From Ilumatobacteraceae bacterium (lineage in GTDB: Bacteria > Actinomycetota > Acidimicrobiia > Acidimicrobiales > Ilumatobacteraceae): DNA of 64,000 nucleotides. Positions 4,285-19,452 of this stretch are shown here, in pieces. The first letter of the stretch is position 1, and every line of letters begins with the position of its first letter. The notes under the pieces are model-generated. The model did no database searches and was not told the origin of the DNA. It saw only the letters and a list, made by a program, of their open reading frames with translations. Position numbers and translations under genes: made by a program. Location of the stretch: the NCBI GenBank assembly GCA_033344875.1, contig JAWPMO010000001.1, positions 4,675,595 through 4,739,594 on the forward strand, in the 5' to 3' direction.

Positions 4285-4433
4285 GTTCCTCGGACGATGC
4301 GATGCGGATGTGTCTCGGGCTCACGGGTCAGTAGATCGGCGTCCCGTCTGCCTCTGGCTTTTCTGCTTGCTCGGGAGCGCGGCGAGGAGTAGAACGAGGT
4401 GAACAACTCAGCGACTGATTGATCAGAGGCGGC

Positions 4434-6482
4434 GTGAACATCGTGGTCGATTCGGAACGGCGGGCCTCTTGGGCCGTCACGGTGGTCATCGGTCTCCTGG
4501 CGATCTCGTCGCTGGCGGTCGATGCTGCCGCCGCAGCGGGTCCAGGCACCGCATGGGCGTGGGGTGCCAATGACGACGGCCAGCTGGGCAACGGGTCGAC
4601 CGCGTCGCGGCTCGCGCCTGCGGCGAACGGCCTCACCGGCGTGATCGACCTGCACGGTGGCCGTGAGCACGTGGTAGCGCTGCTGTCGAACGGCACGGTT
4701 CGCACGTGGGGCGACAACGGTCAGGGCCAGCTCGGTGACGGCACGCTCACCGATCGTCGCGGCCCGACCACCGTCGGGGGTTTGACCAATGTGACCGCCG
4801 TCGAGACCGGGCACTACCACTCGCTGGCGCTGAAGTCCGATGGTTCCATCTGGACGTGGGGCTACAACGCCTTCGGCCAACTCGGAGACGGGACCACGAC
4901 CCGGAGAACCACTCCGGTGAGGGTGCTGGGTATCAGCGATGCGATCGAGATCGCGGCGGGCCGTGACATGAGTTACGCGATCCGCGCAGACGGCAGCGTG
5001 TGGGCGTGGGGGCTCAACGGCGACGGACAGCTTGGAGACGGGACGACCACGACCCGTACCTCGCCGGTGAGGGTCGGCCTGACGAACGTCGTGGACATCG
5101 CCGGTGGCCGTGACCACGGGCTCGCCGTTCGCTCGAACGGCGAGGTCTGGGCGTGGGGTTGGAACAGCTACTCGCAGCTCGGTGACGGAACGACGACCGA
5201 TCGATTGAGTCCGGTTCGGGTCGGCGGATTGGGCGCCGCGACCGAAGTCATCGCAGGAGCGCACCATTCCTATGCGCTGCTGTCGAACGGCCAGGTGTGG
5301 TCGTGGGGACGGAACTATCGGGCGGAACTGGGTGATGGCACCACGGTCCAGCGGAGCACCCCCGTGCGGGTCTCCGGGTTGGCGGGCGTCGTCGCGATCG
5401 GCAGCGGACGCGATCACGGCCTGGCGGTCCTGGCCGACGGCACATTGCGGGCCTGGGGAGACAACAGCGGCGGCCAGCTCGGCGACGGCACGGTGACTCG
5501 TCGCCTGACCCCCGTGGTCGTCCCCGGCATCAGCGGTGTCGAGGTGGTCGCGGGCGGCTCCAGCTACTCCGTGGCGCTCGCCTCGACGGGGTCGCCGCCG
5601 GCGAACCTGCCGCCGACGGCCGCCATCACGGTCGACTGCAGCGGGTTGTCGTGCGTGTTCGGCAGCACCGGCAGTTCCGACCCCGACGGCACGATTGCGA
5701 CACGCGCCTGGAATCTCGGTGACGGGACGGCATCAGGTGCCCAGTCCGTCGCGCACGTCTACGGCGAGCCAGGTTCGTACACGGTGACGCTCACCGTGAC
5801 GGACGACGAGGGCGCAGCGGGCACTGCCGCCTCCACGATCACCGTCGGCGATCCGGCCGGCGGAACGGTCGGGTATCGCGATGCCGCGTCGTCGAATGCG
5901 AACACCACGAACGCACGGGTCACGGTGCCCGGTTCGGTCCGAGCCGGCGACGTCATGCTCCTCTTCTCGACGACCAACAGCACCGCGTCCGCCTCGACCC
6001 CGACCGGGTGGACGATGCTCGGCGTTCAGACAGACGGGAGCCCCGACATCGTCTCGCGGCTCTACACCCGAGTCGCGGCCGCAGGGGATGCCGGAACGAC
6101 GGTGTCAGTGGTGACGGGTGCGCTCGCCAAGACCTCGTTGAGTCTGGTCGCCTATCGAGATGCAGCGCCCGTGGCGACCTGGGCGGTGCGGGCCGAGCCG
6201 GGTACGACAGCGTCGCACGTCACGCCGTCCGTGTCGGTCGGCGTCAGCGGCTCGACGATCGTGAGCTACTGGGCCGACAAGTCGAGCGCCGCCAGCGCGT
6301 GGACGCTGCCTGCGTCGGTCGCCGAACGGGCCCGGAGCAGCGGGGCCGGCGGTGGGCGCATCGACGCGATCACCGGCGACACAGTCGCCCGGACCGCCGG
6401 AAGCTGGGCGGGAGCCACGGCGACTGCTGCGACCACTGCGAGCAAGGCGGTGATGTGGTCGGTCGTCGTGTCTCCCGGGTGA
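4434..6482 (+). CDS. Secreted RCC1 beta-propeller protein with PKD domain
   Basis: 682 residues. A Sec-type signal peptide (hydrophobic core about 14-33, ending in a run of alanines) is followed by seven RCC1 repeats of about 50 residues, each with a WxWGxNxxGQLGDGT core (about 38-385). Next come a PKD domain (about 390-475, with DPDGTIATRAWNLGDG and YTVTLTVTDD) and a beta-rich C-terminal domain of about 200 residues that begins after SSNANTT. RCC1 propellers are binding modules; the ligand is unknown. GTG 4434 is preceded by AGAGG at a suitable distance. It is a close paralogue of the gene at 19453-21498, with the same domain order and near-identical blades. There is no C-terminal anchor, so it is probably extracellular. 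Confidence 0.85.
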   Translation: MNIVVDSERRASWAVTVVIGLLAISSLAVDAAAAAGPGTAWAWGANDDGQLGNGSTASRLAPAANGLTGVIDLHGGREHVVALLSNGTVRTWGDNGQGQLGDGTLTDRRGPTTVGGLTNVTAVETGHYHSLALKSDGSIWTWGYNAFGQLGDGTTTRRTTPVRVLGISDAIEIAAGRDMSYAIRADGSVWAWGLNGDGQLGDGTTTTRTSPVRVGLTNVVDIAGGRDHGLAVRSNGEVWAWGWNSYSQLGDGTTTDRLSPVRVGGLGAATEVIAGAHHSYALLSNGQVWSWGRNYRAELGDGTTVQRSTPVRVSGLAGVVAIGSGRDHGLAVLADGTLRAWGDNSGGQLGDGTVTRRLTPVVVPGISGVEVVAGGSSYSVALASTGSPPANLPPTAAITVDCSGLSCVFGSTGSSDPDGTIATRAWNLGDGTASGAQSVAHVYGEPGSYTVTLTVTDDEGAAGTAASTITVGDPAGGTVGYRDAASSNANTTNARVTVPGSVRAGDVMLLFSTTNSTASASTPTGWTMLGVQTDGSPDIVSRLYTRVAAAGDAGTTVSVVTGALAKTSLSLVAYRDAAPVATWAVRAEPGTTASHVTPSVSVGVSGSTIVSYWADKSSAASAWTLPASVAERARSSGAGGGRIDAITGDTVARTAGSWAGATATAATTASKAVMWSVVVSPG

Positions 6483-7885: not shown

Positions 7886-8692
7886 GTGACCGCCTACATC
7901 ATCGTCGACACCAACGTCTCCGAACCGGAGCTCTACGAGGAGTACAAGGCGCTGGCCCGGCCGGTCGCCGAGCAGTACGGCGGCGAGTACCTGGCGCGCG
8001 GCGGCGAGATGCGGATCGACGACGACGACCTGTGGACGCCGCGGCGACTCGTCGTGCTGTCGTTCCCCGACATGGCGGCGGCGAACGCCTTCCTCGACAG
8101 CGACGAGTACGCGCCGGTCAAGCAGCTCCGCCGGCAGTACGCCACGTCGACCGTGGTCGTGGTCGACGGGGCGCCGACCGCGCCCTCGACACCCGCCGAG
8201 CGCCGCATCGAGGTGCAGCGGGCGATCGCTGCCGATCCCGCCACGATCTTCGACCTGCTCCGGCGCCCCGAGGGTCACGTCGAGATCGACGCGTCCGGCA
8301 TGCTGATGTCGGCGACCGGTGAACCGGCGGGCTCCGTCGGCGACCGGTTCACCGTGCACATGGATCGCGACTCGCTGCGCGACTTCGACCTGGGCGAGTA
8401 CGACGTCGAGGTCGTGATGACGGTGTTCGAACCGGACCGCGAGATCGCCTGGACGATCGACGGTCAGCTCCAGCCGCCGATCAACCACGTGTACGGGTAC
8501 CGCCTCGAAGCGATCGACGGCGGCACGATCGTGACGTCGTACTACGACTGGTCGGAGATCCACGAGCAGTACGAACCGTTCGCGGAGACCATCTTCCCGG
8601 TCGTGTCCGAGCAGAACCTGCGTGGCACGCTCGGCATCCTCGCCCGCCGGGTCGCACCCGGCGCATCACGCCCGCAGATCGACACCGCCTGA
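7886..8692 (+). CDS. DUF1330 - SRPBCC (polyketide cyclase-like) fusion protein
   Basis: 268 residues with two recognisable parts. Residues 1-95 look like a DUF1330 ferredoxin-like domain (AYIIVDTNVSEPELYEEYK near the start and LVVLSFPDMAAANAFLDSDEY at about 54-74). Residues 108-255 look like an SRPBCC/START-fold ligand-binding domain (RRIEVQRAIAADPATIFDLL at its start, VEVVMTVFEPDREIAWTIDG in the middle, a long C-terminal helix). SRPBCC domains bind hydrophobic ligands or act as cyclases. The partner module and divergent P450 suggest handling of a hydrophobic substrate, which is inference. GTG 7886 is the first credible start. It ends 8 bp before the convergent CLCA-like gene. Confidence 0.75.
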   Translation: MTAYIIVDTNVSEPELYEEYKALARPVAEQYGGEYLARGGEMRIDDDDLWTPRRLVVLSFPDMAAANAFLDSDEYAPVKQLRRQYATSTVVVVDGAPTAPSTPAERRIEVQRAIAADPATIFDLLRRPEGHVEIDASGMLMSATGEPAGSVGDRFTVHMDRDSLRDFDLGEYDVEVVMTVFEPDREIAWTIDGQLQPPINHVYGYRLEAIDGGTIVTSYYDWSEIHEQYEPFAETIFPVVSEQNLRGTLGILARRVAPGASRPQIDTA

Positions 8693-8700
8693 GCGACCGG

Positions 8701-11202
8701 TCAGCGCGGCGCGAGGACCGGCGGCTTCGTCGGCAGACCGAGCCGGTCGTCGCTGCGGAGCGGGCTCACCCACCGTCGGGGATCGAACGGTTTCCGCGGA
8801 TCGTCGTCCGATCGCCCCTGCTCCTCGTCGTCGGGCAGCCGCCCGGACGGGTCCTTGACCGGTCCGAGCACCACGGAGATCGGCACGTGCCGGACGAACC
8901 CGGCGGTGTCGGCCCGTGCCGCCCCGATCTCGTCGTGGGAGTCGGCGTGCAGCAGCGTGTGCTGCATGTTCGCGATCAGCGGCCGCTCGGGGGCCCGGAT
9001 CTCGATGTAGCCGGAGTACGCGCCGTCGGGGAGGTCGGCCCAGCCCCGGTACACCCCGTCGAGCATGTCGTCGTGCAGGCGCAGGTCGTGCCAGGGCCCG
9101 CCGGGCCGTCGGATCCGGGCGCCGACCGTCAAGCCGGTCAGCGGTTCGACGAAGCGGGCCCCGGCACGGAACTCCACCGGACAACCGGCGCCGTGCCGGA
9201 GGGCCTCGCCGAAGACGGTGACCTCCCGATGGTCGATCGCTGCGATCGCCTTGGACGGAACGGCCGCGCCCCGGTCGAGGCGCACGCCGATCACGAGCCA
9301 CTGACCGGCCGCCGGACGCTCGATCTTGGCGAACTCGTACGGCTCGGGCCCGGCGTTCCAGGCGACGACCTCGCCCGCCGACGGATGGACCTCGTTGCCG
9401 CTCGGATCGATCAGGTACATCCAGTACGTGGCCGGCTCGCCGTGCGAGAGCGTGAACGTCGTGTTCTGAGCGCCCTTCTCGACCTCGAGCCCGAACCAGG
9501 TGTAGCGATGCGGAGCCGAACCGCGAGCGCTGACCGCCTTCTCGAAGGGGAGCAGGCCGAACTCGGCGATCAACTCGTCGAGCGACGGGCGGTCGGGTGG
9601 TGCGATGTCGTCCGCCTTGCGGGCGAGTTCGTCGAGCCGATCGTCGACCTCCTTGGTGTCGCCGCCGCCGCTTCCGGTCGTCGAGAGCATGCCGCCGCGG
9701 ATGACGGCGTTGATCTCGATCATCGCCGCCTGGATCGCTGCGGCGTCGGAACCTTCACCGGCGGTCTGCGCGGTGCCGCCGGTGTCGGACGCGAGTTCGA
9801 CCAGACCCGGCAGGTCCATCTCGGCGCCGGCGCCGACGCCGAGCGTGTGGATGTTGGTGTTGGCCGAGCGGTAGGGATCGACCGCATCGGCCACCGCGGT
9901 ACCACCCGCGTTGTGGGCGCCGTCGGTGATCAGCACGGCTGCCTGCACGCTCGCGGGCGTCGCCGGACTCGTGATCTGCCCCAAGGCGTCCAGGAGCCCG
10001 TCGACGATGTTCGTCCCACCCGCCGCGGTCTGGTTGTCGATCGTGTCGAGCTCGGCTGCCACCGCCGTGTCGCTCAGGGTGCCGAAACCGACCAGCGGGA
10101 GCTGCACGGCTGCAGCGTTGTCGTACCAGACGATCGTGAGCTGATCGTCTTCGACAGCGGCGTTCTCGATCCAGAACTTGGCGCCGGTCTGGACGCCCTG
10201 CAGCCGTGCCCCGCTGTTGCGGTTCATCGACCCGGAGCGATCGAGCACCAGTGCCAGCCGGACGTTCGGGTCGAGCTCGACCCAGGTGGGAGCGGTCCAC
10301 CCGCCCGGCATGGTCGTGTTCGCAGCGTCCGAGCTGTCGGGGTCGCCCGAGCTCAGGTTCGTGAACCCGTCGACCGCGACGATCGTCTCCCAGCAGGGCT
10401 CGCCCAGGTCGCTCTCCTGGTCGGTGTCACCGTCGGGATCGTGGTTGGCGGCCGTGCAGAACTCGGTCACTGGTTGTGGATGCGGTGTCCAGGTGCCGTC
10501 CGGCGCGAGATCGCCGGCGCTGCTCCTGCTGAACTCCATGATGCAGGCGCCCGTCGACCGGTCGCCGGTGCACTCGACGTCGTCGACCCACTGGATCGTC
10601 ACGGCCTCCCAGATGCAGTCCTGGGGGTTGTCGGTGAACGCCGACACGGTGGTGATGCGGTTGCCCACCTTCGACAGGATCTCGATCGTCTCGACCGGCT
10701 GCCCCTCGAACCGGAGGAGCGCGTTCGCCCCGGCGTAGTTGGCGTCGGGTTCGTCGTGCGAGGTACTCGTCAGCGGGATCGTGCGGTTGCCGTGACCGGC
10801 CGGCAACGTGGCGTCGGTGTCGATCCACATTCCCTCCGATCGGGCGTACTCCTCCTTGAGACCCCACACGTGATGCCCCATCTCGTGGAGGATCGACAGG
10901 ACCTGCTGCTGGGCGTACGCCGGCAGGAAGATCGCCTCGCCGGACTGCCCCCACTTGCCGTTGGTGCCGAGCGCCCGGCCCGCCGTGTCGGGGTCGAGGA
11001 CGAACTCGGCGTTGTTGGCGCCGGCGTTGTTCTCCGCGACCCAGATCGTCCCGATCCGGAGTTGCCCCTCGGTCGCGTTCCAGAGCAGCTCGGACGCCTT
11101 GCTGAACGCCCGCTGCCACCGATCCCGGTCGTCGGCGTTCATGTTGTAGTTCGCGGTGATCTGGAAGTTCAGGACCTGCCCGCTGCGATTGCCGTTCCCC
11201 AT
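8701..11202 (-). CDS. CLCA-like protein: HExxH metallopeptidase-like domain plus VWA domain
   Basis: 833 residues. The N-terminal third contains HEMGHHVWGLKEEY at about 106-119, which matches the HExxH...E zinc-protease motif of animal CLCA (calcium-activated chloride channel regulator) proteins. Also CLCA-like is a Cys-containing stretch (about 215-265) with CIMEF and VTEFCTAANH. A von Willebrand A domain follows at about 310-500, with MIDAS motif DRSGSMN and a later GGTNIVDGL. The C-terminal part is beta-rich, like the CLCA beta-sandwich region. No signal peptide is visible at the chosen ATG, which has AGAGGAAC just upstream; this is odd for such a domain set. The lipoprotein gene lies upstream on the same strand with a 79-bp gap. 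Domain assignment is good; function is unknown. Confidence 0.8.
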   Translation of the reverse strand: MGNGNRSGQVLNFQITANYNMNADDRDRWQRAFSKASELLWNATEGQLRIGTIWVAENNAGANNAEFVLDPDTAGRALGTNGKWGQSGEAIFLPAYAQQQVLSILHEMGHHVWGLKEEYARSEGMWIDTDATLPAGHGNRTIPLTSTSHDEPDANYAGANALLRFEGQPVETIEILSKVGNRITTVSAFTDNPQDCIWEAVTIQWVDDVECTGDRSTGACIMEFSRSSAGDLAPDGTWTPHPQPVTEFCTAANHDPDGDTDQESDLGEPCWETIVAVDGFTNLSSGDPDSSDAANTTMPGGWTAPTWVELDPNVRLALVLDRSGSMNRNSGARLQGVQTGAKFWIENAAVEDDQLTIVWYDNAAAVQLPLVGFGTLSDTAVAAELDTIDNQTAAGGTNIVDGLLDALGQITSPATPASVQAAVLITDGAHNAGGTAVADAVDPYRSANTNIHTLGVGAGAEMDLPGLVELASDTGGTAQTAGEGSDAAAIQAAMIEINAVIRGGMLSTTGSGGGDTKEVDDRLDELARKADDIAPPDRPSLDELIAEFGLLPFEKAVSARGSAPHRYTWFGLEVEKGAQNTTFTLSHGEPATYWMYLIDPSGNEVHPSAGEVVAWNAGPEPYEFAKIERPAAGQWLVIGVRLDRGAAVPSKAIAAIDHREVTVFGEALRHGAGCPVEFRAGARFVEPLTGLTVGARIRRPGGPWHDLRLHDDMLDGVYRGWADLPDGAYSGYIEIRAPERPLIANMQHTLLHADSHDEIGAARADTAGFVRHVPISVVLGPVKDPSGRLPDDEEQGRSDDDPRKPFDPRRWVSPLRSDDRLGLPTKPPVLAPR

Positions 11203-11281
11203 GGTCGTTCCTCTCGGTGTTCCCTCGTCGGTACTGACAGAGAGGCGCGTGCACGCCTTCAGATACGTGCGTGGCGACGAA

Positions 11282-11842
11282 TCAGCCGTCGCAGTCGGGC
11301 GACCAGATGCCGAGCTCCTGGTCGCGGGCGTCCTGCTCGGTGGATCGATACTTCGCCGGGTCGGGACCCTCGCCCGTGGAGCGCGCCAACCCGAGCGAGA
11401 GCATCACGAGCGCGAGGTCGTCGCCGGTGTCACCGACGACCGTGGCGTCGTCGATCCGGCCGTTGCGGGCTTCGGGAGGGGTGACCGTGACGGTCCGGCC
11501 GCCGCCGGTGATGAACGCGAGCGAGTCGGTCGCTTGTTGTGCGAGACAGGCGTCGCCGACCGGCACGTCGATCCCTGCGAGGGTCGCCGTGGCGCGCTCG
11601 AGCCCCTGGTGGAGCTCGAGCGTTCGGCCGTCGATCGCACTCGCGATGCGCCATTGGCGGCCGTCGACGGGTGCCGGCGGAACCTCCGCGGCGACGGCCG
11701 CGGCGCGCGGCGTCAGCACCGCCGGATCGATGGTGCCGTGGATCGGTTCGAGGGGCTCGTCGTCGGCGACCTCGGGCAGCGAGCACCCGGCGATCACCAA
11801 TGCGGCGCACATCGGCACCGCCCAACCCGTCACCGGCCTCAC
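11282..11842 (-). CDS. Lipoprotein with staphylococcal-nuclease-like fold
   Basis: 186 residues from GTG 11842. The N-terminus MRPVTGWAVPMCAALVIAGC is a short lipoprotein signal with lipobox VIAGC. The mature part contains AIDGRTLELHQG and ATLAGIDVPVGDACLAQQA, the order of elements in the SNase/TNase OB-fold (VxDGDT, then LxGIDxPE, then A). The acidic and arginine catalytic residues of true nucleases are not clearly conserved, so it may be a binding rather than a nuclease domain. It lies 79 bp upstream of the CLCA-like gene in the same direction. Longer starts up to 11926 would put about 28 non-signal residues in front of the lipobox and are less likely. Confidence 0.65.
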   Translation of the reverse strand: MRPVTGWAVPMCAALVIAGCSLPEVADDEPLEPIHGTIDPAVLTPRAAAVAAEVPPAPVDGRQWRIASAIDGRTLELHQGLERATATLAGIDVPVGDACLAQQATDSLAFITGGGRTVTVTPPEARNGRIDDATVVGDTGDDLALVMLSLGLARSTGEGPDPAKYRSTEQDARDQELGIWSPDCDG

Positions 11843-12037
11843 GGCTCCATCAAACCCGCAGCCGCTCGGCGACGCAATCACCCGAGTGGGTGCGATCGAG
11901 TGGTCCGGTTGCCTGTCGATGGGCACCGGGGCCGGGCGGGGTCATGCCGTGGTCGGCCCCGGCCGGACAACTCGTACGTTGCGCCGAGCCGGCGGCGTCC
12001 GAAAGCAGCGAAAGCGGTGAACGCGCCAACCCGGCGA

Positions 12038-13078
12038 TCAGGCCAGTCGGAAGCGAGGTGTGCCGCTCGAGGTGTGCCCGATCCGCGCGGCCGTGTGGCC
12101 GGTCGCACGCAGCTTGCGTAGCACTTCGTCGGTGTGCGCCGGGTCGATGCCGAACACGAGACCGCCGGACGTCTGCGCGTCGGCGATCAGCAAGCGGTGG
12201 ACCTGGTCGTGCGAGCCACCATCGAGGAGATCGACGCCCCACTCGAGGTTGCGGGCGCTGCCGCCCGGCATCACGCCGTCGGCGGCCAGCTCGACCGCAC
12301 CCGGCAGGAACGGCACGGCGTCGAAGTCGACGTCGACGACCACGGCGGACTCGACCGCCATCCGACCGAGGTGTCCGAGCAGCCCGAACCCGGTGACATC
12401 GGTACAACCGGTGGCGCCCGCGGCGACCGCCACCTGGGCGGCCTGATCGTTGAGGCGGGTCATCGACGCGACCGCGGCCTCGGCCGACTCGAGCGGGGCG
12501 ACGTCGCGCTTGATGGCCGTCGTGATGACGCCGACGCCGAGCGGCTTGGTGAGGATGATGTCCTGGCCGGATCGGAGCCCAGCATTGGTCAGGATGTGAT
12601 CGGGGTGGACCTCGCCGGTGACGGCCATGCCGTACTTGGGTTCGGGATCGTCGATCGTGTGACCCCCGACGATCGCGAAGCCACCGGCGGTGGCGATGTC
12701 CTGGCCACCGGCGAGCACCTCGCCGAGCAGCGTGGTCGGGAGCGCGTCGACGTTCCAGCCGACGAGGTTGAGCGCGAACAGCGGCCGGCCGCCCATCGCG
12801 TACACATCGGACACGCTGTTGGCGGCTGCGACACGGCCCCAGGTGCGCGCATCGTCGACCACCGGGGTGATGAAGTCCGCGGTGGAGACCAGGGCTCGCT
12901 CGTCGTCGAGCCGCCACACAGCGGCATCGTCACCGGTGTCGGTGCCGACGAGGAGTTCGGTGGGATGATCGGACTGCAGGTCGCGCACGACGTGCGCGAG
13001 CTCGCCGGGGGCGAGCTTGCAGCCTCAACCCGCGCCGTGGCTGAATTGTGTGAGGCGATGCGTGTGGGGTTCGTCCAT
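12038..13078 (-). CDS. selD: Selenophosphate synthetase, selenocysteine-containing
   Basis: Makes selenophosphate from selenide and ATP, the selenium donor for selenocysteine and selenouridine. The sequence downstream of 12988 encodes an obvious SelD (GTDTGDDAAVWRL, the VSTADFITPVVDD metal/ATP site, VGGHTI, CTDVTGFGLLGHLG, DAQTSGGL). Reading upstream in the same frame, ATG 13078 gives MDEPHTHRLTQFSHGAG, then an in-frame TGA at 13025-13027, then GCKLAPGELAHVV. This is the conserved SelD active-site block G(C/U)GCK, with selenocysteine at residue 18. Total length is then 346, the normal SelD length. A stem-loop follows the UGA. Divergent from the aldo/keto reductase gene. A standard gene call starting at GTG 12988 would lose the active site. 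Confidence 0.93.
12999..13017 (-). promoter_or_regulatory. Candidate bacterial SECIS hairpin in selD
   Basis: Starting about 8 nt after the UGA codon, AGCTCGCC and GGCGAGCT form a perfect 8-bp stem around a CCC loop on the coding strand. Position and compactness fit a bacterial SECIS recognised by SelB. The usual G/U-containing apical loop is not obvious. Confidence 0.5.
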
Positions 13079-13152
13079 GATTCCTCGCTCGTGCCAGCCT
13101 ACGGCCGGGCGACCTCGCGTTTCCGGACGCTGGGATCGGGTACGCCAGGAGC

Positions 13153-14019
13153 ATGACCTCCATCCACGACACGACGACCTTCCGACTCGCCGGCGGCCAC
13201 GAGATCCGCCGGCTCGGCTACGGCGCCATGCAGTTGACCGGCGATGGCGTCTGGGGCGAGCCCGCCGATCCGGTGACCGCCAAGCAGGTGTTGCGCGACG
13301 CCGTCGAGTTGGGTGTGAACTTCTTCGACACCGCCGACTCGTACGGGCCGGAGGTCAGCGAGCGGCTGATCGGCGAGGCGCTCTCGCCGTATGCCGACGA
13401 CGTCGTGATCGCGACGAAGGCGGGTCTGGTTCGACCCGGCCCGGGACAGTGGGAACCGAATGGCTCGCCCGAACACATCCACACCTCGTGCGACCGGAGT
13501 CTGGCGAGGCTCCAACTCGACCGGATCCCGCTGTATCAACTCCATCGCATCGACCCCGACGTCCCGGTCGCCGAGTCGATCGGCGCGATGCTGGAGCTGC
13601 GCGAGGCGGGCAAGATCGATCAGATCGGTGTGTCGGAGGTGACCGTCGACGAACTGCACCAGGTGCGCGAACTGTGTGACGTCGCATCGGTGCAGAACCG
13701 GTTCAACATCGCGGACCAGGACGACTGGAACGACGTGGTGGACGCCTGCGCTGCCGACGGCATCGCGTTCATCCCCTGGTTCCCGTTGGGTTCGGGCGAC
13801 CTCGGATCGACCGGGAAGGCGCTCGACGCTGTCGCTTCCGCGCACGAGACCGACCGGTACGCGGTCGCGCTGGCCTGGCTCCTGCATCGGGCGCCGAACA
13901 TCGTGCCGATCCCCGGGACGAAGTCGCCCGATCACCTGCGGAGCAATGTGTCGGCCGCCCACCTCGTCGACGAGATCACCGACGAGGAGTGGTCGACGCT
14001 CGACTCGGCCGCCGTCTGA
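13153..14019 (+). CDS. Aldo/keto reductase
   Basis: 288 residues. NADPH-dependent carbonyl reductase of the (beta/alpha)8 AKR superfamily, cytoplasmic. The catalytic tetrad is visible: Asp and Tyr in FFDTADSYGPE (about 57-67), Lys in IATKAG, and His in LYQLHRIDP. The NADP-binding C-terminal block VPIPGTKSPDHLRSNVSAA is present. ATG 13153 has no strong ribosome site; the gene is divergent from selD across 74 bp. The substrate is unknown. A GC-rich hairpin without a T tract lies between its end and the convergent LamG/PKD gene. Confidence 0.92.
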   Translation: MTSIHDTTTFRLAGGHEIRRLGYGAMQLTGDGVWGEPADPVTAKQVLRDAVELGVNFFDTADSYGPEVSERLIGEALSPYADDVVIATKAGLVRPGPGQWEPNGSPEHIHTSCDRSLARLQLDRIPLYQLHRIDPDVPVAESIGAMLELREAGKIDQIGVSEVTVDELHQVRELCDVASVQNRFNIADQDDWNDVVDACAADGIAFIPWFPLGSGDLGSTGKALDAVASAHETDRYAVALAWLLHRAPNIVPIPGTKSPDHLRSNVSAAHLVDEITDEEWSTLDSAAV

Positions 14020-14090
14020 ACGCAGCACCCGCGACCGTCTTGCGCCGGCCGGGAGACCGAACACGAGCTTGCTCCACGCGAGCAGACTCC

Positions 14091-14106
14091 CGCCGCGCTC
14101 GCGGCG
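14091..14106. terminator. GC-rich hairpin between convergent genes
   Basis: CGCCGC, loop GCTC and GCGGCG form a 6-bp perfect stem between the ends of the AKR and LamG/PKD genes. No T tract follows, so a terminator role is only possible. Confidence 0.3.
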
Positions 14107-14151
14107 AGCACATGAGTACTCCGGCGCGTGGACGGCGGAACGTCGATCTGA

Positions 14152-16857
14152 TCAGTTCGTGAGATAGCCGAACGCATCGGCGAGGAGGTGGGCGCCGGTG
14201 AGTGCATAGGCATCGATGCGCCCCTGCTCACCGATGTCCACGATCACGCCGTTGGCCCGGACGTCGCCGCCGATCGGGGCGTTGACGTTGGACGTGCCCG
14301 GCCGAGCGAGTCCGGTGGCCCACAGCGTGACATAGCCGGGCGCCGTGCTGATGTACGTCGCGTTGAGCACGACGCCGCTCGCGTCGGCAGGGATCCCGCC
14401 GACGTCGGCGATCTGGACGGTGATGGTCGAGTCGTCGGCGATCACCCCCTTGGGTCCCGGAGCAGGCTCGCTGGGACGGGTGTCGAAGATCCGGCTTGGG
14501 TCGATCGGCACGAAGAGACCGGTGGTGATCGCCGGGGCGGACGGCCCGGTGGCGTAGCCGAGCAGGTCGATCACCACGTGGGTCGACGCGTTCGAGAACA
14601 CGCGGACCTTGCCGTCGGCGCCGATGGGGACGATGACCATGTTGGCGCTCGTCTCGCCGACGCCGCTCGCGTTGACGGAGCTGGCGGTTGGTCGAGGCCC
14701 GTCGGGCCACACGGTCAAGAACGCCGGCGCGGACGGTTCGGTGATCGTCACATTGACGAGAACGGCGCCGGCTCCAGCGGGGATGGCCGAGGTGTCGGCG
14801 ATGGTGACCTCGAGTTCGCCACCGGCCGGAATGCGACCCTTCGGTCCCGGGTCGGAGCCGGGCCGGGTGTCGAGCAATCGTGTCGGCGTCTGGGTGACGA
14901 TACGACCGGAGCTGGTGGCGCCGGACGCCGTGAAGTAGCCGACGACGTCGCCGATCAGGTGGGCCTCGCGGAGGCTGTACAGACTGATCATGCCCTCGTC
15001 GCCCACGGGGACGATCGCCAGGTTCGCCCGGACGGCGCCGGGTTCGATCACGTTGAGGCTGGAGAGTTCGGTCGGACGGGGATCTCCGGTCGGCCATGCC
15101 GTGATGTAGCTCGGTGCGTCGACGGCGACCACGGTCAGATTGATCGCCACGGCGGTGATGTCCGCCGGAACCGATCCGACACCCGCCACCGCGACGTCGA
15201 TCTGCGTGCCCTCGGCGATGACGCCCTTGGGCCCGGGCGCCGCTTCGTCGGGTCGGGTGTCGAACAGCCGGAATGGCGTCACGGCGGTCAGTGCCGACGG
15301 CAGTGCCGTCGGCGGAGAGCTCGCGGCATCGTCCACGACGATCGTCTGTTCCGCCGTCGAGGTGGCGCCGTCGTCGTCGGTGACGGTGAGGGTGACGGTG
15401 TAGGTTCCGCCGGTTGTGTAGGTGTGGCTGGGGGTGGCGCCGTTGCCGGTTGTGCCGTCGCCGAAGTCCCATGACCGCGAGGTGATGACACCGTCGGCGT
15501 CCGACGACGCCCCGCTGTCGAACACACAGAGGAGGAGCCCGCACGACGAGACGAACGTCGCGTCCGGTCCCGTGTTGGAGAGCGGAGCGATCGTCTGTTC
15601 CGCCGTCGAGGTGGCGCCGTCGTCGTCGGTGACGGTGAGGGTGACGGTGTAGGTTCCGCCGGTTGTGTAGGTGTGGCTGGGGGCGGTGCCGTTGCCGGTG
15701 GTGCCGTCGCCGAAGTCCCATGACCGCGAGGTGATGACACCGTCGGCATCCGACGATGCCCCGCTGTCGAACGCGCAGGTGGTCTTGTCACACGCCGCGG
15801 TGAAGTCGGCGTCGGGAGCGAAATTGAGCGTGACCGACCCGGAGGTGGCGTCGACGGCGCCGTCGTCGTCGGTGACGGTGAGGGTGACGGTGTAGGTGCC
15901 GCCGGTTGTGTAGGTGTGGCTGGGGGTAGTGCCGTTGCCGGTGGTGCCGTCGCCGAAGCTCCAGCTCCGTGCCACGATCGTTCCATCCGGGTCGCTCGAC
16001 GAGCTCGAGTCGAAGTCGCAGTCGAGCTGGTCACAGGTGGACGTGAACGAGCCGTTCGGCGGTTCGTTCGCCGGCCCGGAACCCCCTGCCTTCTCGATCT
16101 TCACGTAGTCGATGTTGCCGTTGAAGTAGTCGCAGGAAACCTCGATCTGGTCGCACGAGTACTTCCCTCCGATCGACAACACCTTGGTGTTCGACACCGA
16201 CTGGACGAAATCGTTCGGATCGGATTTGGTGGTCTGCGCTGCCCGCACACCATCGACGAAGAGCCGAACCCGGTTCTGGGTCTTCTCGCATCGGATCGTG
16301 TGCCAGTCGCCGTCGTTCGTCTTGAACTGAGGCTCGTGCGGGGCGCTGGCGCCGAGCGTGTCGCCGTCGACATCTTTGATGAGGCACGTCATGTACCCGT
16401 TCGGCTGCTCGAACTTGAAGTATCCGCCGACCGTCGTGTTCTGCCCCTTCTGGACGATGTTTCCCCAGCTGACCGTGCTGCGGTACCTGAACTCGACAGC
16501 GAAGTCGGAGGTTCCGAAGTCGAGCGCGTCGTTGTCGGGAACGGTCACCAACCGTTCCGTGTCGGCCGGGATCTGGGTCGGCGACACTGCATTGAAGCGG
16601 TAGCCGGTGGCGCCCCCCGTTCCGACCCCCGTGCTGACCAGGGAACCGATCGACCCGTCGAGGTCGTTCGGGCCTGAATCGTCCATCTTCGCGGCGCCCG
16701 ACGACTCGTTCATCTGGTAGTTCGCGATCACCGGCATGAGGGTCGGATCCACGGCGCTGGCCGTCGACGCCGGCAGCGCAACCAAGGAGGTCAACGTGAG
16801 TGCGAGTGCGATCGCGACCCCGCTGCCGAGGTACCCACCAATTCGTTGTCCGCTCAT
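14152..16857 (-). CDS. Secreted LamG-like / PKD / RLFDTRP-repeat surface protein
   Basis: 901 residues from ATG 16857. A signal peptide (GSGVAIALALTLTSLVALPA, cleavage near ASTASA) is followed by a concanavalin/LamG-like domain (about 40-260, with IANYQMNESSG, FAVEFRYR, GDWHTIRCEKTQ and LFVDGVRAA). Three PKD domains follow (about 272-535, each with a WxFGDGTTGNG core and TYTVTLTVTDDDGA). Three tandem beta domains of about 125 residues end the protein, each opening with RLFDTRP or RIFDTRP and ending in a ...DxxGYxT motif. Such repeats are common in secreted actinobacterial proteins; function is unknown. It is a tandem paralogue of the gene at 17000-19186. Likely cell-surface adhesion or matrix, by inference. 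Confidence 0.82.
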   Translation of the reverse strand: MSGQRIGGYLGSGVAIALALTLTSLVALPASTASAVDPTLMPVIANYQMNESSGAAKMDDSGPNDLDGSIGSLVSTGVGTGGATGYRFNAVSPTQIPADTERLVTVPDNDALDFGTSDFAVEFRYRSTVSWGNIVQKGQNTTVGGYFKFEQPNGYMTCLIKDVDGDTLGASAPHEPQFKTNDGDWHTIRCEKTQNRVRLFVDGVRAAQTTKSDPNDFVQSVSNTKVLSIGGKYSCDQIEVSCDYFNGNIDYVKIEKAGGSGPANEPPNGSFTSTCDQLDCDFDSSSSSDPDGTIVARSWSFGDGTTGNGTTPSHTYTTGGTYTVTLTVTDDDGAVDATSGSVTLNFAPDADFTAACDKTTCAFDSGASSDADGVITSRSWDFGDGTTGNGTAPSHTYTTGGTYTVTLTVTDDDGATSTAEQTIAPLSNTGPDATFVSSCGLLLCVFDSGASSDADGVITSRSWDFGDGTTGNGATPSHTYTTGGTYTVTLTVTDDDGATSTAEQTIVVDDAASSPPTALPSALTAVTPFRLFDTRPDEAAPGPKGVIAEGTQIDVAVAGVGSVPADITAVAINLTVVAVDAPSYITAWPTGDPRPTELSSLNVIEPGAVRANLAIVPVGDEGMISLYSLREAHLIGDVVGYFTASGATSSGRIVTQTPTRLLDTRPGSDPGPKGRIPAGGELEVTIADTSAIPAGAGAVLVNVTITEPSAPAFLTVWPDGPRPTASSVNASGVGETSANMVIVPIGADGKVRVFSNASTHVVIDLLGYATGPSAPAITTGLFVPIDPSRIFDTRPSEPAPGPKGVIADDSTITVQIADVGGIPADASGVVLNATYISTAPGYVTLWATGLARPGTSNVNAPIGGDVRANGVIVDIGEQGRIDAYALTGAHLLADAFGYLTN
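15340..15990. repeat. Near-identical tandem DNA repeats encoding PKD domains
   Basis: Three tandem copies of a 243-249 bp unit inside the LamG/PKD gene. The segments from about 15340, 15590 and 15850 share long identical blocks, including GTCGTCGGTGACGGTGAGGG. Copies one and two are almost identical over about 180 bp. Whole repeat periods are multiples of 3, so gain or loss of a unit would keep the frame. Confidence 0.85.
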
Positions 16858-16999
16858 CCATCCGCCCCGTCGAGTGATCGGCACGAGCGTCCCCAACCGC
16901 CGCTCCGTCGCCATCACGACGATATCACCGCACAGCGTGGCGAATTCGTCAAAAGACTTGGTGATAACGAGATGTTCGGGTCGATCGCCGGAGGTTCGT

Positions 17000-19186
17000 T
17001 CAGGGCAGGAGGTACCCGACCGCATCCGCCACGACGTGAGCGGTGGTCAGCACGTACACGCCGACGCGCTGGTCGTCGCCCACGCGGACGATGGCACCGT
17101 TCGGTCTCACGTCGCCGTCCCGGTCGACGTTGACGCTGGAGGTCGTCGGACGAGACGACCCAGCCGGCCACAACGTCGCGAAGCCGGGTCCACTTCCGAT
17201 CAGGGTCACATTGAGCACGACACCACCGGCGTCGGAGGGGATCCCGGAGACGCCTGCGACTCGTGGGGTGATCGTCCTGTCGCTCTCGACGATCCCCTTG
17301 GGGCCGGCTGCCGGTTCGTCCGGCCGGGTGTCGAAGACACGACTCGGTTCGAGAGGAACGAACAATCCGGCGGTTGCCGTCTCGGCGTTGCCGTCGGTGA
17401 CCCAACCCAACACGTCGGCGACCAGGTCCACCTCCGTCGAGGAGGCGAAACGGACCCGACCGTCCGAGCCCACGGGGACGATGACCTGGTTCGCGACCGT
17501 GTCGTAAGTCCCGTTGATGTTCAGGCTGCTGGCCAACGGCCGTCGGCCGTCGGGCCACACCGTGACGTAGCCCGGTCCGGCTGCTGCCGTGGCGGTGACG
17601 TTCATCACGACCGCGGCGACCCCGACATCGGGTATTCCGGCACGTCCGAGCACTTGGGCGGTCACGGAACCACCGGCCGGAACGCGCCGTGGCGCGCCCG
17701 GAGCGGAGTCCACGCGCGTGTCGAAGAGCCGACGCGGGCGCTGCGTGATGATTCGGCCATCGTCGGACGGGGTGTCCTGAGGTCGGAAGTAGCCCGCGAC
17801 GTCACCGAGGAGATGAGCGTCGCGCAAGCTGAAGAGTGAGATCGTGCCGTCCGCATCGACGGGAACGATGACGAGATTGGCGCGCACGTCTCCGGGCACG
17901 ACGACGTTGAGGCTCGATGTGGTCGCTGCGGTGGATTCGGTGGGCGTGGCTGCGACGTAGCTGGGCGCCTCGATACCGATCGCGGCGAGATTGATCGCAA
18001 CGGCGGTCACCCCCGACGCAGGGACGCCGGCGTGCCCGGCGACCTGCACTCGAAGCGAGGTGCCACCGCGGACGACGCCCTGGTACTCGTCGGGTGACAT
18101 TCCTGGCCGGGTGTCGAACAATCGCGTCGGCGACACGGCGATGAACTTCGATGCGACGAGGGGATCGGCGGTGTCGCCGTGCTCGACGACGACGAGGCGT
18201 TCGCGCTCGGTCGTCGCTCCGTCGTCGTCGGTGACTGCGAGCGTCACCCGGTGCTCGCCGGCGAGATCGAACGCGTGCTCGACCCGGGCTCCCGATGCCG
18301 TCGCCTCCGATGCGTCGAACGTCCAGCGCGTCTCGGCGATGACGCCGTCGGTGTCGAACGAGGGTGCGCTGTCGAGTGAACACGTCAGTTCGGAACACTC
18401 GACGGTGAAGTCCGCCGTGGGAGCCTGGTTCGGTGCCTCGCCGACGTCCTTGTCGATCCGGACGTAGTCGATGTCGCCGGAGAAGTAGTCGCAGCCGACG
18501 GACTGCTGGTTGCACTCGACCTTGCCCCCGATCGTGACGTCGAAGTCGTTCGAGATCGAGCCGACCGAAGTGCGCCGGCGATCGACCACCTGTCCGTCGA
18601 CGTACATTGTGACGGCATCGCTGGAGCGCACGCATCGAAGGGTGTGCCAATCGCCGTCGGCGAGCGAGGTCGGGCCGCTGACGGCAGCTTCGTCTTGCAA
18701 GGTGCGACGGAACAGACAGGTCGGGATGCCGTCGTCGTGCTCGAGCTTCCAGTATCCGCCCGACGTCTGGCTCTGCCCCTTCTGCACGATGTTGCCGAAC
18801 CGGCGATCGGTTCGGTAGCGGATCTCGACGGCGAAGTCGTCCGAGCCCGGATCGAGGTGGGGATGATCCTCGACGACAGCCAACCGCTGTGGTCGGAGGG
18901 GGGAGGTGTCGGGCGCAGCGTACGGCCACCGGTACCCGGTCGAGCCCTGGTGCGACGTCGCGGTCACGATGTCGCCGCCGATTCGGCCATCGAGACCGAA
19001 GGGTCCCGAGTCGCGCATGACGGCTGCGCCCGCGCCCTCGTTCATCTGGTACGAGGCGACCGTCTGGATCGCTGCTCGTGCGACGGGTGCCGTCGAGAGC
19101 GTGATGGCGCCGACCATCGTCAGACACGCGACGGAGAGGATCGCAGCACGAGACCGTTGGGGGCGAGCGAGATGCATGTGTGTCAT
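17000..19186 (-). CDS. Secreted LamG-like / PKD / RLFDTRP-repeat surface protein (paralogue)
   Basis: 728 residues from ATG 19186 (ATG 19177 and 19216 are alternatives; none has a clear ribosome site). The signal peptide ends near APVARA. A LamG-like domain (about 38-250) opens with QTVASYQMNEGAG and carries FAVEIRYRTDRRFGNIVQKG, almost the same as its neighbour. It has one PKD-like domain (about 260-340) instead of three, then three RLFDTRP beta domains. It ends 142 bp before the start of the similar gene downstream on the same strand, so the two probably arose by duplication and then differed in PKD number. Cysteines in the LamG part (CDYF and partners) are shared. Function unknown; extracellular. 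Confidence 0.82.
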   Translation of the reverse strand: MTHMHLARPQRSRAAILSVACLTMVGAITLSTAPVARAAIQTVASYQMNEGAGAAVMRDSGPFGLDGRIGGDIVTATSHQGSTGYRWPYAAPDTSPLRPQRLAVVEDHPHLDPGSDDFAVEIRYRTDRRFGNIVQKGQSQTSGGYWKLEHDDGIPTCLFRRTLQDEAAVSGPTSLADGDWHTLRCVRSSDAVTMYVDGQVVDRRRTSVGSISNDFDVTIGGKVECNQQSVGCDYFSGDIDYVRIDKDVGEAPNQAPTADFTVECSELTCSLDSAPSFDTDGVIAETRWTFDASEATASGARVEHAFDLAGEHRVTLAVTDDDGATTERERLVVVEHGDTADPLVASKFIAVSPTRLFDTRPGMSPDEYQGVVRGGTSLRVQVAGHAGVPASGVTAVAINLAAIGIEAPSYVAATPTESTAATTSSLNVVVPGDVRANLVIVPVDADGTISLFSLRDAHLLGDVAGYFRPQDTPSDDGRIITQRPRRLFDTRVDSAPGAPRRVPAGGSVTAQVLGRAGIPDVGVAAVVMNVTATAAAGPGYVTVWPDGRRPLASSLNINGTYDTVANQVIVPVGSDGRVRFASSTEVDLVADVLGWVTDGNAETATAGLFVPLEPSRVFDTRPDEPAAGPKGIVESDRTITPRVAGVSGIPSDAGGVVLNVTLIGSGPGFATLWPAGSSRPTTSSVNVDRDGDVRPNGAIVRVGDDQRVGVYVLTTAHVVADAVGYLLP

Positions 19187-19452
19187 GTGGGAGCCGTGGC
19201 GCTCGGGACGAGCCATCCGGTACCACGGAGGTAACCGGAGGCGTCGCACTCTAAACGGCGCGGGGCGAACTCGCCGACGGAACCGGCGGCAAGTTGATGG
19301 CGGAGCCGCGAATCCCACACAACGTGACGATCGCGCTCTGTTCGGCACGAACAGCGCGCGGTCGGGTGGCAGTTGCTCCGCCGGCCTCCGTCAACTAGAA
19401 CAGACCTTGAGCGGACGAGCGGAGTCCGGTCACGACGGTGGGAGGGACCGAC

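What the first reader, a model, noticed from the sequence alone, without database searches (positions are those of the whole stretch)
8701..11202. Bacterial CLCA-like protein with HExxH and VWA domains
HEMGHHVWGLKEEY closely matches the active-site stretch of animal CLCA proteins, and a Cys-rich block with VTEFC and a VWA MIDAS domain follow in CLCA order. CLCA homologues in bacteria are little described. The absence of an N-terminal signal peptide makes its location a puzzle.
Basis: partly seen in the sequence, partly recalled or inferred. Interest (0 to 1): 0.6.

Follow-up and report, generated by a model that had tools for sequence, protein, structure and literature searches.

The report
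Leaderless CLCA-like bacterial metalloprotease
A bacterial gene, probably actinobacterial, encodes a probable zinc protease built like the animal mucus protein CLCA1 (protease, cysteine-rich block, then a ligand-binding domain) but with no recognisable export signal; it is a rare, distant relative of a family whose bacterial members were already described in 2013.

Summary
The ORF at 8701-11202 (-) is real: 833 aa, ribosome site, purifying codon pattern, and one full-length relative found (62%, MAG contig JAAELU010000006.1). The HExxH stretch, cysteine block, VTEFC and MIDAS-type VWA are all present. The CLCA link is supported but limited. It rests on the cysteine block before the VWA: 22.1 bits against CLCA1, reached by 0 of 1000 shuffles and 0 of 2792 decoy ORFs. 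NCBIfam's CLCA model TIGR00868 matches residues 244-494 (59.7 bits, cut-off 900.85). Pfam's CLCA_N is sub-threshold (13.7 of 25.6 bits), level with peptidase M64. The part upstream of HExxH and the C-terminal third show no clear similarity to CLCA1. So it is a distant CLCA-type protein, not a member by Pfam's definition. Most likely it is a cytoplasmic zinc protease whose VWA docks a partner; this is inferred. Contractile-injection cargo is unlikely: neither carrier genome matched eCIS-core or sheath families. Bacterial CLCAs were described in 2013 (PMC3650047); its table lists no Actinobacteria. Structure prediction failed (pLDDT 30). Modest interest.

The parts
8701..11202 (-). CLCA-like protein, 833 aa, whole gene
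   Evidence: ORF; full-length relative L003 at 62%; codon-position pattern
11210..11215 (-). Shine-Dalgarno-like GAGAGG, 7 nt before ATG
   Evidence: sequence
10588..11202 (-). N-terminal zincin-like region, residues 1-205, no signal peptide
   Evidence: HExxH; CLCA_N 13.7 bits and M64 13.9 bits, both below cut-off; hydropathy
10846..10887 (-). active-site stretch HEMGHHVWGLKEEY, residues 106-119
   Evidence: collinear with CLCA1
10291..10587 (-). cysteine block, residues 206-304 (C211, C220, C249, C270; VTEFC)
   Evidence: 22.1 bits against CLCA1, 0 of 1000 shuffles, 0 of 2792 decoy ORFs; global z 8.1
9703..10272 (-). VWA domain, residues 311-500; MIDAS DRSGS at 321-325, T397, D427
   Evidence: PF00092 E 4e-11; TIGR00868 244-494; MIDAS residues assigned by eye
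8701..9702 (-). linker and C-terminal region, residues 501-833 and stop, no family assigned
   Evidence: residues 505-833 have no Pfam or NCBIfam match; 52% identical to the relative over 561-800

Best explanation
It is a distant bacterial relative of the animal CLCA proteins: a zinc metalloprotease domain (HExxH with a conserved EEY), a CLCA-type cysteine block and a metal-dependent (MIDAS) VWA domain, followed by a C-terminal region of unknown family. Inferred mechanism: the VWA binds a partner protein through a divalent cation, and the zincin domain cleaves that partner or another copy of itself, as CLCA1 and CLCA2 cleave themselves. Without a signal peptide it most likely acts in the cytoplasm, where the four conserved cysteines would more plausibly bind a structural metal than form disulphides. 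Shown: the gene, the motifs, their conservation in a second genome, and the cysteine-block similarity. Inferred: protease activity, location, metal binding by the cysteines, and substrate.
For: H106, E107, H110, E117, E118, Y119, the MIDAS residues (D321, S323, S325, T397, D427) and C211, C220, C249, C270 are identical in the one full-length relative found, L003, with a purifying codon pattern. TIGR00868 (CLCA) gives 59.7 bits over 244-494, against 46.9 when only residues 311-833 are scanned; the relative matches it over the same span, 46.8 bits. Cysteine block against CLCA1: 22.1 bits, 0 of 1000 shuffles (best 9.9), 0 of 2792 decoys (best that is not a fragment of this gene 9.1); global z 8.1 and 8.7 for the two proteins. 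The order is collinear with CLCA1: 101-129 to 151-179, then 222-483 to 223-460. CLCA2 self-cleavage needs zinc and the HExxH glutamate (PMC10669480, passages); the CAT/Cys+VWA piece is the more active form of CLCA1 (PMC6851300, passages).
Against: Pfam CLCA_N is below its cut-off and no better than M64, and a PF08434 search of the own genome at E up to 10 did not report this gene. The relative's whole sequence gives M64 and VWA families but not CLCA_N. Two phage-type zincins chosen by motif score higher on the N-domain profile (17.6, 15.9 bits) than CLCA1 (4.6). Upstream of HExxH there is nothing against CLCA1 (120 of 1000 shuffles as good). C-terminal pieces: 98 of 1000 for 561-660, 4 of 1000 for 661-760, no global signal. 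Some other VWA proteins match the VWA better than CLCA1 does. No CLCA chain was among the solved-structure matches (2, 6). No structure was obtained. There is no activity, location or substrate evidence.
Confidence: 0.58

Rival explanations
1. It is not a CLCA relative: an unrelated zincin (M64- or phage-zincin-like) and an ordinary bacterial VWA came together independently, and the order only mimics CLCA.
For: N-domain scores M64 and CLCA_N alike; upstream of HExxH no CLCA1 signal; motif-selected phage-type zincins score up to 17.6 bits on the N-domain profile against 4.6 for CLCA1; some other VWAs of the phylum match better than that of CLCA1.
Against: The cysteine block matches CLCA1 with 22 bits, in the right place between protease and VWA. 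None of 2792 decoy ORFs, which include the fetched VWA proteins and the motif-selected phage-type proteins, reached that score. The 2013 survey reports no detectable homologues of that block in known proteins (PMC3650047, section 7).
Confidence: 0.17
2. It is cargo of a contractile injection system (eCIS): leaderless, with VWA and HExxH, loaded into the particle and delivered to another cell.
For: VWA domains occur in eCIS loci and an HExxH domain, DUF4157, is an eCIS core domain (PMC8213781, passages); a same-genus and a same-family genome do carry eCIS-core and sheath matches.
Against: Neither carrier genome has a PF13699 (eCIS core) or PF04984 (sheath) match at E up to 0.001: 0 of 2 carriers, against 2 of 2 non-carriers searched. 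The ten neighbouring frames scanned show no injection-system or phage family. G664 is a MAG and may be incomplete.
Confidence: 0.04
3. Its protease site is idle and it is a VWA scaffold with a structural metal site.
For: Many CLCAs have substituted sites (PMC3650047, abstract and section 7); no substrate is known here.
Against: H, E, H and EEY are intact in both proteins.
Confidence: 0.15

Closest known systems
Animal CLCA proteins (CLCA1/CLCA2; NCBIfam TIGR00868, Pfam PF08434)
   Same: Order HExxH domain, cysteine block with VxEFC-like motif, MIDAS VWA; W and EY after HExxH shared with CLCA1
   Different: No signal peptide; CLCA_N below cut-off; about 50 more residues between HExxH and the cysteine block; C-terminal region not recognisably CLCA
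Prokaryotic CLCAs of Lenart et al. 2013 (PMC3650047)
   Same: Rare and scattered; typical architecture repeated in some of them
   Different: Those were found by CLCA_N similarity; the table lists Chloroflexi, Synergistetes, Proteobacteria and Thermococcus, no Actinobacteria. Their sequences were not compared here
IgA peptidase M64 (PF09471)
   Same: Active site HExxHxxxxLxDEY (paper) like ours HEMGHHVWGLKEEY; equal sub-threshold score
   Different: No match outside residues 102-126; no VWA in M64 that I recall
CLCA_X phage/plasmid zincins (PMC3650047, section 8)
   Same: HExxH zincin core
   Different: Consensus HExxHxxxD; the paper says almost none contain known domains. Not compared by profile here

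Membership tests
CLCA (Pfam PF08434 definition) | CLCA_N domain over the curated cut-off (25.6 bits) | tested here: not met
   13.7 bits, E 0.044, residues 104-135 only, when residues 1-310 are scanned alone; not listed for the whole protein at E up to 1
CLCA | HExxHxxxGxxDEY active site | tested here: inconclusive
   Window HEMGHHVWGLKEEY (D to E); relative HELGHHLWTLSEEY (G to T, D to E)
CLCA | Cysteine-rich block between protease and VWA | tested here: met
   22.1 bits against CLCA1 (recalled sequence), 0 of 1000 shuffles, 0 of 2792 decoys
CLCA | VWA with MIDAS after the cysteine block | tested here: met
   PF00092 E 4e-11; MIDAS residues conserved in both proteins
CLCA | Beta-sheet-rich and FnIII C-terminal domains | tested here: inconclusive
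   No Pfam/NCBIfam match in residues 505-833; 98 and 4 of 1000 shuffles as good for the two pieces; no global signal
CLCA | N-terminal signal sequence | tested here: not met
   No hydrophobic N-terminus, same start in the relative; no dedicated predictor used
CLCA | Zinc-dependent self-cleavage | not testable with these tools
   Needs protein
CLCA (NCBIfam TIGR00868) | Score over the subfamily cut-off 900.85 | tested here: not met
   59.7 bits, E 1.2e-16
Peptidase M64 | PF09471 over its cut-off of 26 bits | tested here: not met
   13.9 bits
eCIS cargo | Carrier genome encodes an eCIS | tested here: not met
   No PF13699 or PF04984 match in G000 or G664

The most novel reading that the evidence does not exclude
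A deep, leaderless bacterial lineage of the CLCA architecture that works in the cytoplasm. Because its protease domain has diverged almost beyond recognition from that of human CLCA1 while its two known bacterial copies stay 62% identical, the protease-Cys-VWA design could be older than animals, with transfer from bacteria to animals rather than the reverse proposed in 2013.
Probability: 0.2. Interest if true: 0.6.

Novelty: new variant of a known kind. Interest (0 to 1): 0.36.

Why it matters
Human CLCA1 modulates airway and gut mucus, yet the family's origin and the role of its cysteine block are unclear. A divergent bacterial version in which mainly the cysteine block and VWA remain recognisable, and which has no signal peptide, could show what the minimal CLCA machine is and might be simpler to study. 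It also bears on whether bacterial CLCAs came from animals.

Tried and rejected
Structure: AlphaFold2 on the full protein and on the N-domain with the two-sequence alignments gave mean pLDDT 29.7 and 30.0, so no fold search was run. Solved structures by sequence: VWA matches only, 2 and 6, none named CLCA; none for the N-domain at E up to 10. Mobile origin: the whole protein gave one plasmid and one phage match, both over the VWA; the window's N-domain gave none in plasmids and one of E about 2 in phages; the relative's N-domain one of E about 2 in plasmids; viral contigs gave no relative by protein. PADLOC: no match in 3 sequences. PHROGs: VWA region only. Shared neighbourhood: 13 window genes against L003 and four SelD-bearing loci of 18-20 kb; besides the gene itself (L003 only), SelD and PKD matches nothing was shared. 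Recent transfer by composition: not supported, GC 69.6% and GC3 91% lie within the range of the 16 other genes looked at. eCIS cargo: rejected. RNA elements at 8000-14200: none in Rfam at E up to 1. Promoter-like sites at 8500-13200: none. Animal-type CLCAs on plasmids as intermediates: none at E up to 0.1 with the recalled CLCA1 N-part. L003's isolate name and accession prefix: nothing useful in papers. A tree with other bacterial CLCAs was not possible because none was fetched. Decoy note: one decoy (L039_763) is a fragment of the window gene and was set aside in reading the tops, not in the counts; the decoys include phage-type proteins fetched for their motif.

Full report
What is there. 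The reading frame 8701-11202 on the minus strand encodes 833 aa. It starts with ATG behind GAGAGG. There is no ATG, GTG or TTG further upstream in frame. Its GC (69.6%) and third-position GC (91%) lie within the range of 16 other genes of the window. The same stretch is open on the plus strand (865 aa), but no antisense frame is kept open in the relative (12, 14 and 30 stops).

Relatives. A pattern scan of the species genome collection, which finds close relatives only, gave 13 pattern matches and one relative: L003, contig JAAELU010000006.1, titled 'MAG: bacterium isolate Bpl_13', 62% identical in the best segment, residues 1-806 matched. Elsewhere the gene is rare. With the whole protein, only the own genome matched at E up to 1e-10 among 298 of the order. 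Among 396 of the phylum, 10 others matched at E up to 1e-6, all over the VWA region. With the two-protein profile A1, 15 others of 396 in the phylum of L003's genome matched, again over the VWA region. Of the VWA hits whose frame holds the motif D[RKQL]S[GA]SM, only the window gene and L003 have an HExxH upstream; several hits lack that motif and were not examined this way. With the N-domain alone (profile A2), only the own genome matched among 396 of the phylum, and only L003's genome among 70 chosen as its relatives, itself included. The samples overlap, are drawn from larger groups, and only a few candidates per genome were scored in the larger searches. L003's genome G664 appears to be in the window's phylum, since its phylum sample returned loci at the same contig places; this is inference. 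The window's family includes a genome whose contig is 4,830,181 bases, a length I recall for Ilumatobacter coccineus; the label actinobacterial rests on that recall.

Conservation. The two proteins share the start MGNG, HExxH with EEY, four cysteines in the block and the MIDAS residues. Identity is 71% for residues 1-194, 70% for 195-310, 66% for 311-500, 53% for 501-560 and 52% for 561-800. Codon positions differ by 29, 24 and 56% (803 codons).

Tests of the CLCA link. Pfam on the whole protein: three VWA families over cut-off, a sub-threshold VWA_CoxE, and M64 at 12.2 bits; CLCA_N not listed at E up to 1. Pfam on residues 1-310: M64 13.9 bits and CLCA_N 13.7 bits, both sub-threshold. A six-frame PF08434 search of the own genome at E up to 10 gave one 6.9-bit match elsewhere and not this gene. 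NCBIfam: TIGR00868, the CLCA model, 59.7 bits over 244-494, against 46.9 bits when only residues 311-833 are given, so about 13 bits come from the block before the VWA; that block alone (residues 240-310) gave no NCBIfam match. PF08434 over cut-off was found in 0 of 396 genomes of the window's phylum; two weaker matches were below it. Profiles of the two bacterial proteins against pieces of it gave: cysteine block (195-310) 21.4 bits, 0 of 1000 shuffles as good; VWA 38.9, 0 of 1000; N-domain (1-243) 5.5, 1 of 1000; C-terminal region (501-800) 1.6, 7 of 1000; full length 47.9, 0 of 1000. Finer pieces, shuffles as good of 1000: upstream of HExxH 120, active site 0, after it 5, cysteine block (206-304) 0, 561-660 98, 661-760 4. 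Decoy ORFs as good of 2792: 167, 23, 3, 0, 112 and 4 (one decoy is a fragment of this gene). Global alignment z-scores (window; relative, cut at the window's residue numbers): cysteine block 8.1; 8.7, VWA 15.9; 9.5, N-domain before the block 0.7; 3.3, post-VWA 0.4; -0.9. So the relationship is firm in one contiguous stretch (cysteine block plus VWA), compatible at the active site, and undetectable upstream of it and in the C-terminal third at this depth.

Caution on motifs. HE[ILMV]GHHxW occurs in 27 stretches of viral contigs. In the printed stretches none has EY at the CLCA position; none matched the cysteine-block profile, one gave a weak VWA match (7.4 bits), and several matched the N-domain profile, best 17.6 and 15.9 bits, more than CLCA1's 4.6. 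They were chosen by the motif, which inflates this, but the active-site motif is clearly weak evidence for CLCA. The VWA is not specific either: other VWA proteins score up to 58.8 bits with the whole-family profile, CLCA1 38.9 with the VWA piece and 47.7 with the whole profile, cysteine block included.

Surroundings. Neighbours are a P450, a DUF1330/polyketide-cyclase protein (convergent), a small putative lipoprotein upstream on the same strand, selenide-water dikinase SelD, and an aldo/keto reductase. In L003 the nearest scanned genes are an MFS transporter, an aldo/keto reductase fragment and an RTX-repeat/esterase protein. No shared neighbourhood was found. PF13699 (eCIS core) and PF04984 (sheath) match in the two non-carrier relatives searched (G006, G134) but not in the two carriers (G000, G664).

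Literature. Lenart et al. 2013 (PMC3650047; outline with abstract, passages, sections 7 and 8 read) describe bacterial and archaeal CLCAs, their patchy spread, and propose transfer from animals. Their table names Chloroflexi, Synergistetes, Proteobacteria and Thermococcus. A search for CLCA with Actinobacteria, metalloprotease and HExxH listed only the eCIS paper; searches for work on bacterial CLCAs (listings only) showed no other survey by title. Most subscription papers are not in that library. CLCA2 and CLCA1 biochemistry come from passages of PMC10669480 and PMC6851300; the eCIS paper PMC8213781 was seen as passages.

Interpretation. Best reading: a distant CLCA-type protein, by architecture and cysteine block, that fails the Pfam definition. 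It works like a CLCA if its zincin is active, which is untested. The missing signal peptide, shared by both copies, suggests a cytoplasmic role and metal binding by the conserved cysteines; the 2013 paper postulates for CLCA that the DEY glutamate may bind a second zinc as in M64 (section 8). This is inference.

Noticed in passing
window 12038-13078 (-): SelD (selenide, water dikinase) looks like a selenoprotein itself: an in-frame TGA at 13025-13027 reads HGAGUGCKL, upstream of the GTG start at 12988 that a plain ORF search gives.
   Followed up: partly
window 4419-6482, 14152-17025, 17000-19348: Large repeat proteins: RCC1 repeats with a PKD domain, and two PKD/laminin-G proteins lying head to tail; perhaps surface proteins.
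   Followed up: no
window 8887-11484 (+): Antisense open frame of 865 codons over most of the gene, a high-GC artefact not kept in the relative.
   Followed up: yes
window 11282-11926 (-): Small putative lipoprotein (AGC lipobox by eye), 79 bases upstream of the CLCA-like gene on the same strand; no Pfam match at E up to 0.001.
   Followed up: no
L033, L037 (G006); L032, L034-L036, L038 (G134): Same-genus and same-family genomes carry eCIS-core and sheath matches, but the window's genome gives no match to either family.
   Followed up: partly
L057-L083: 27 viral-contig stretches encode HE[ILMV]GHHxW; they may be CLCA_X-like zincins, but their family was not tested.
   Followed up: partly
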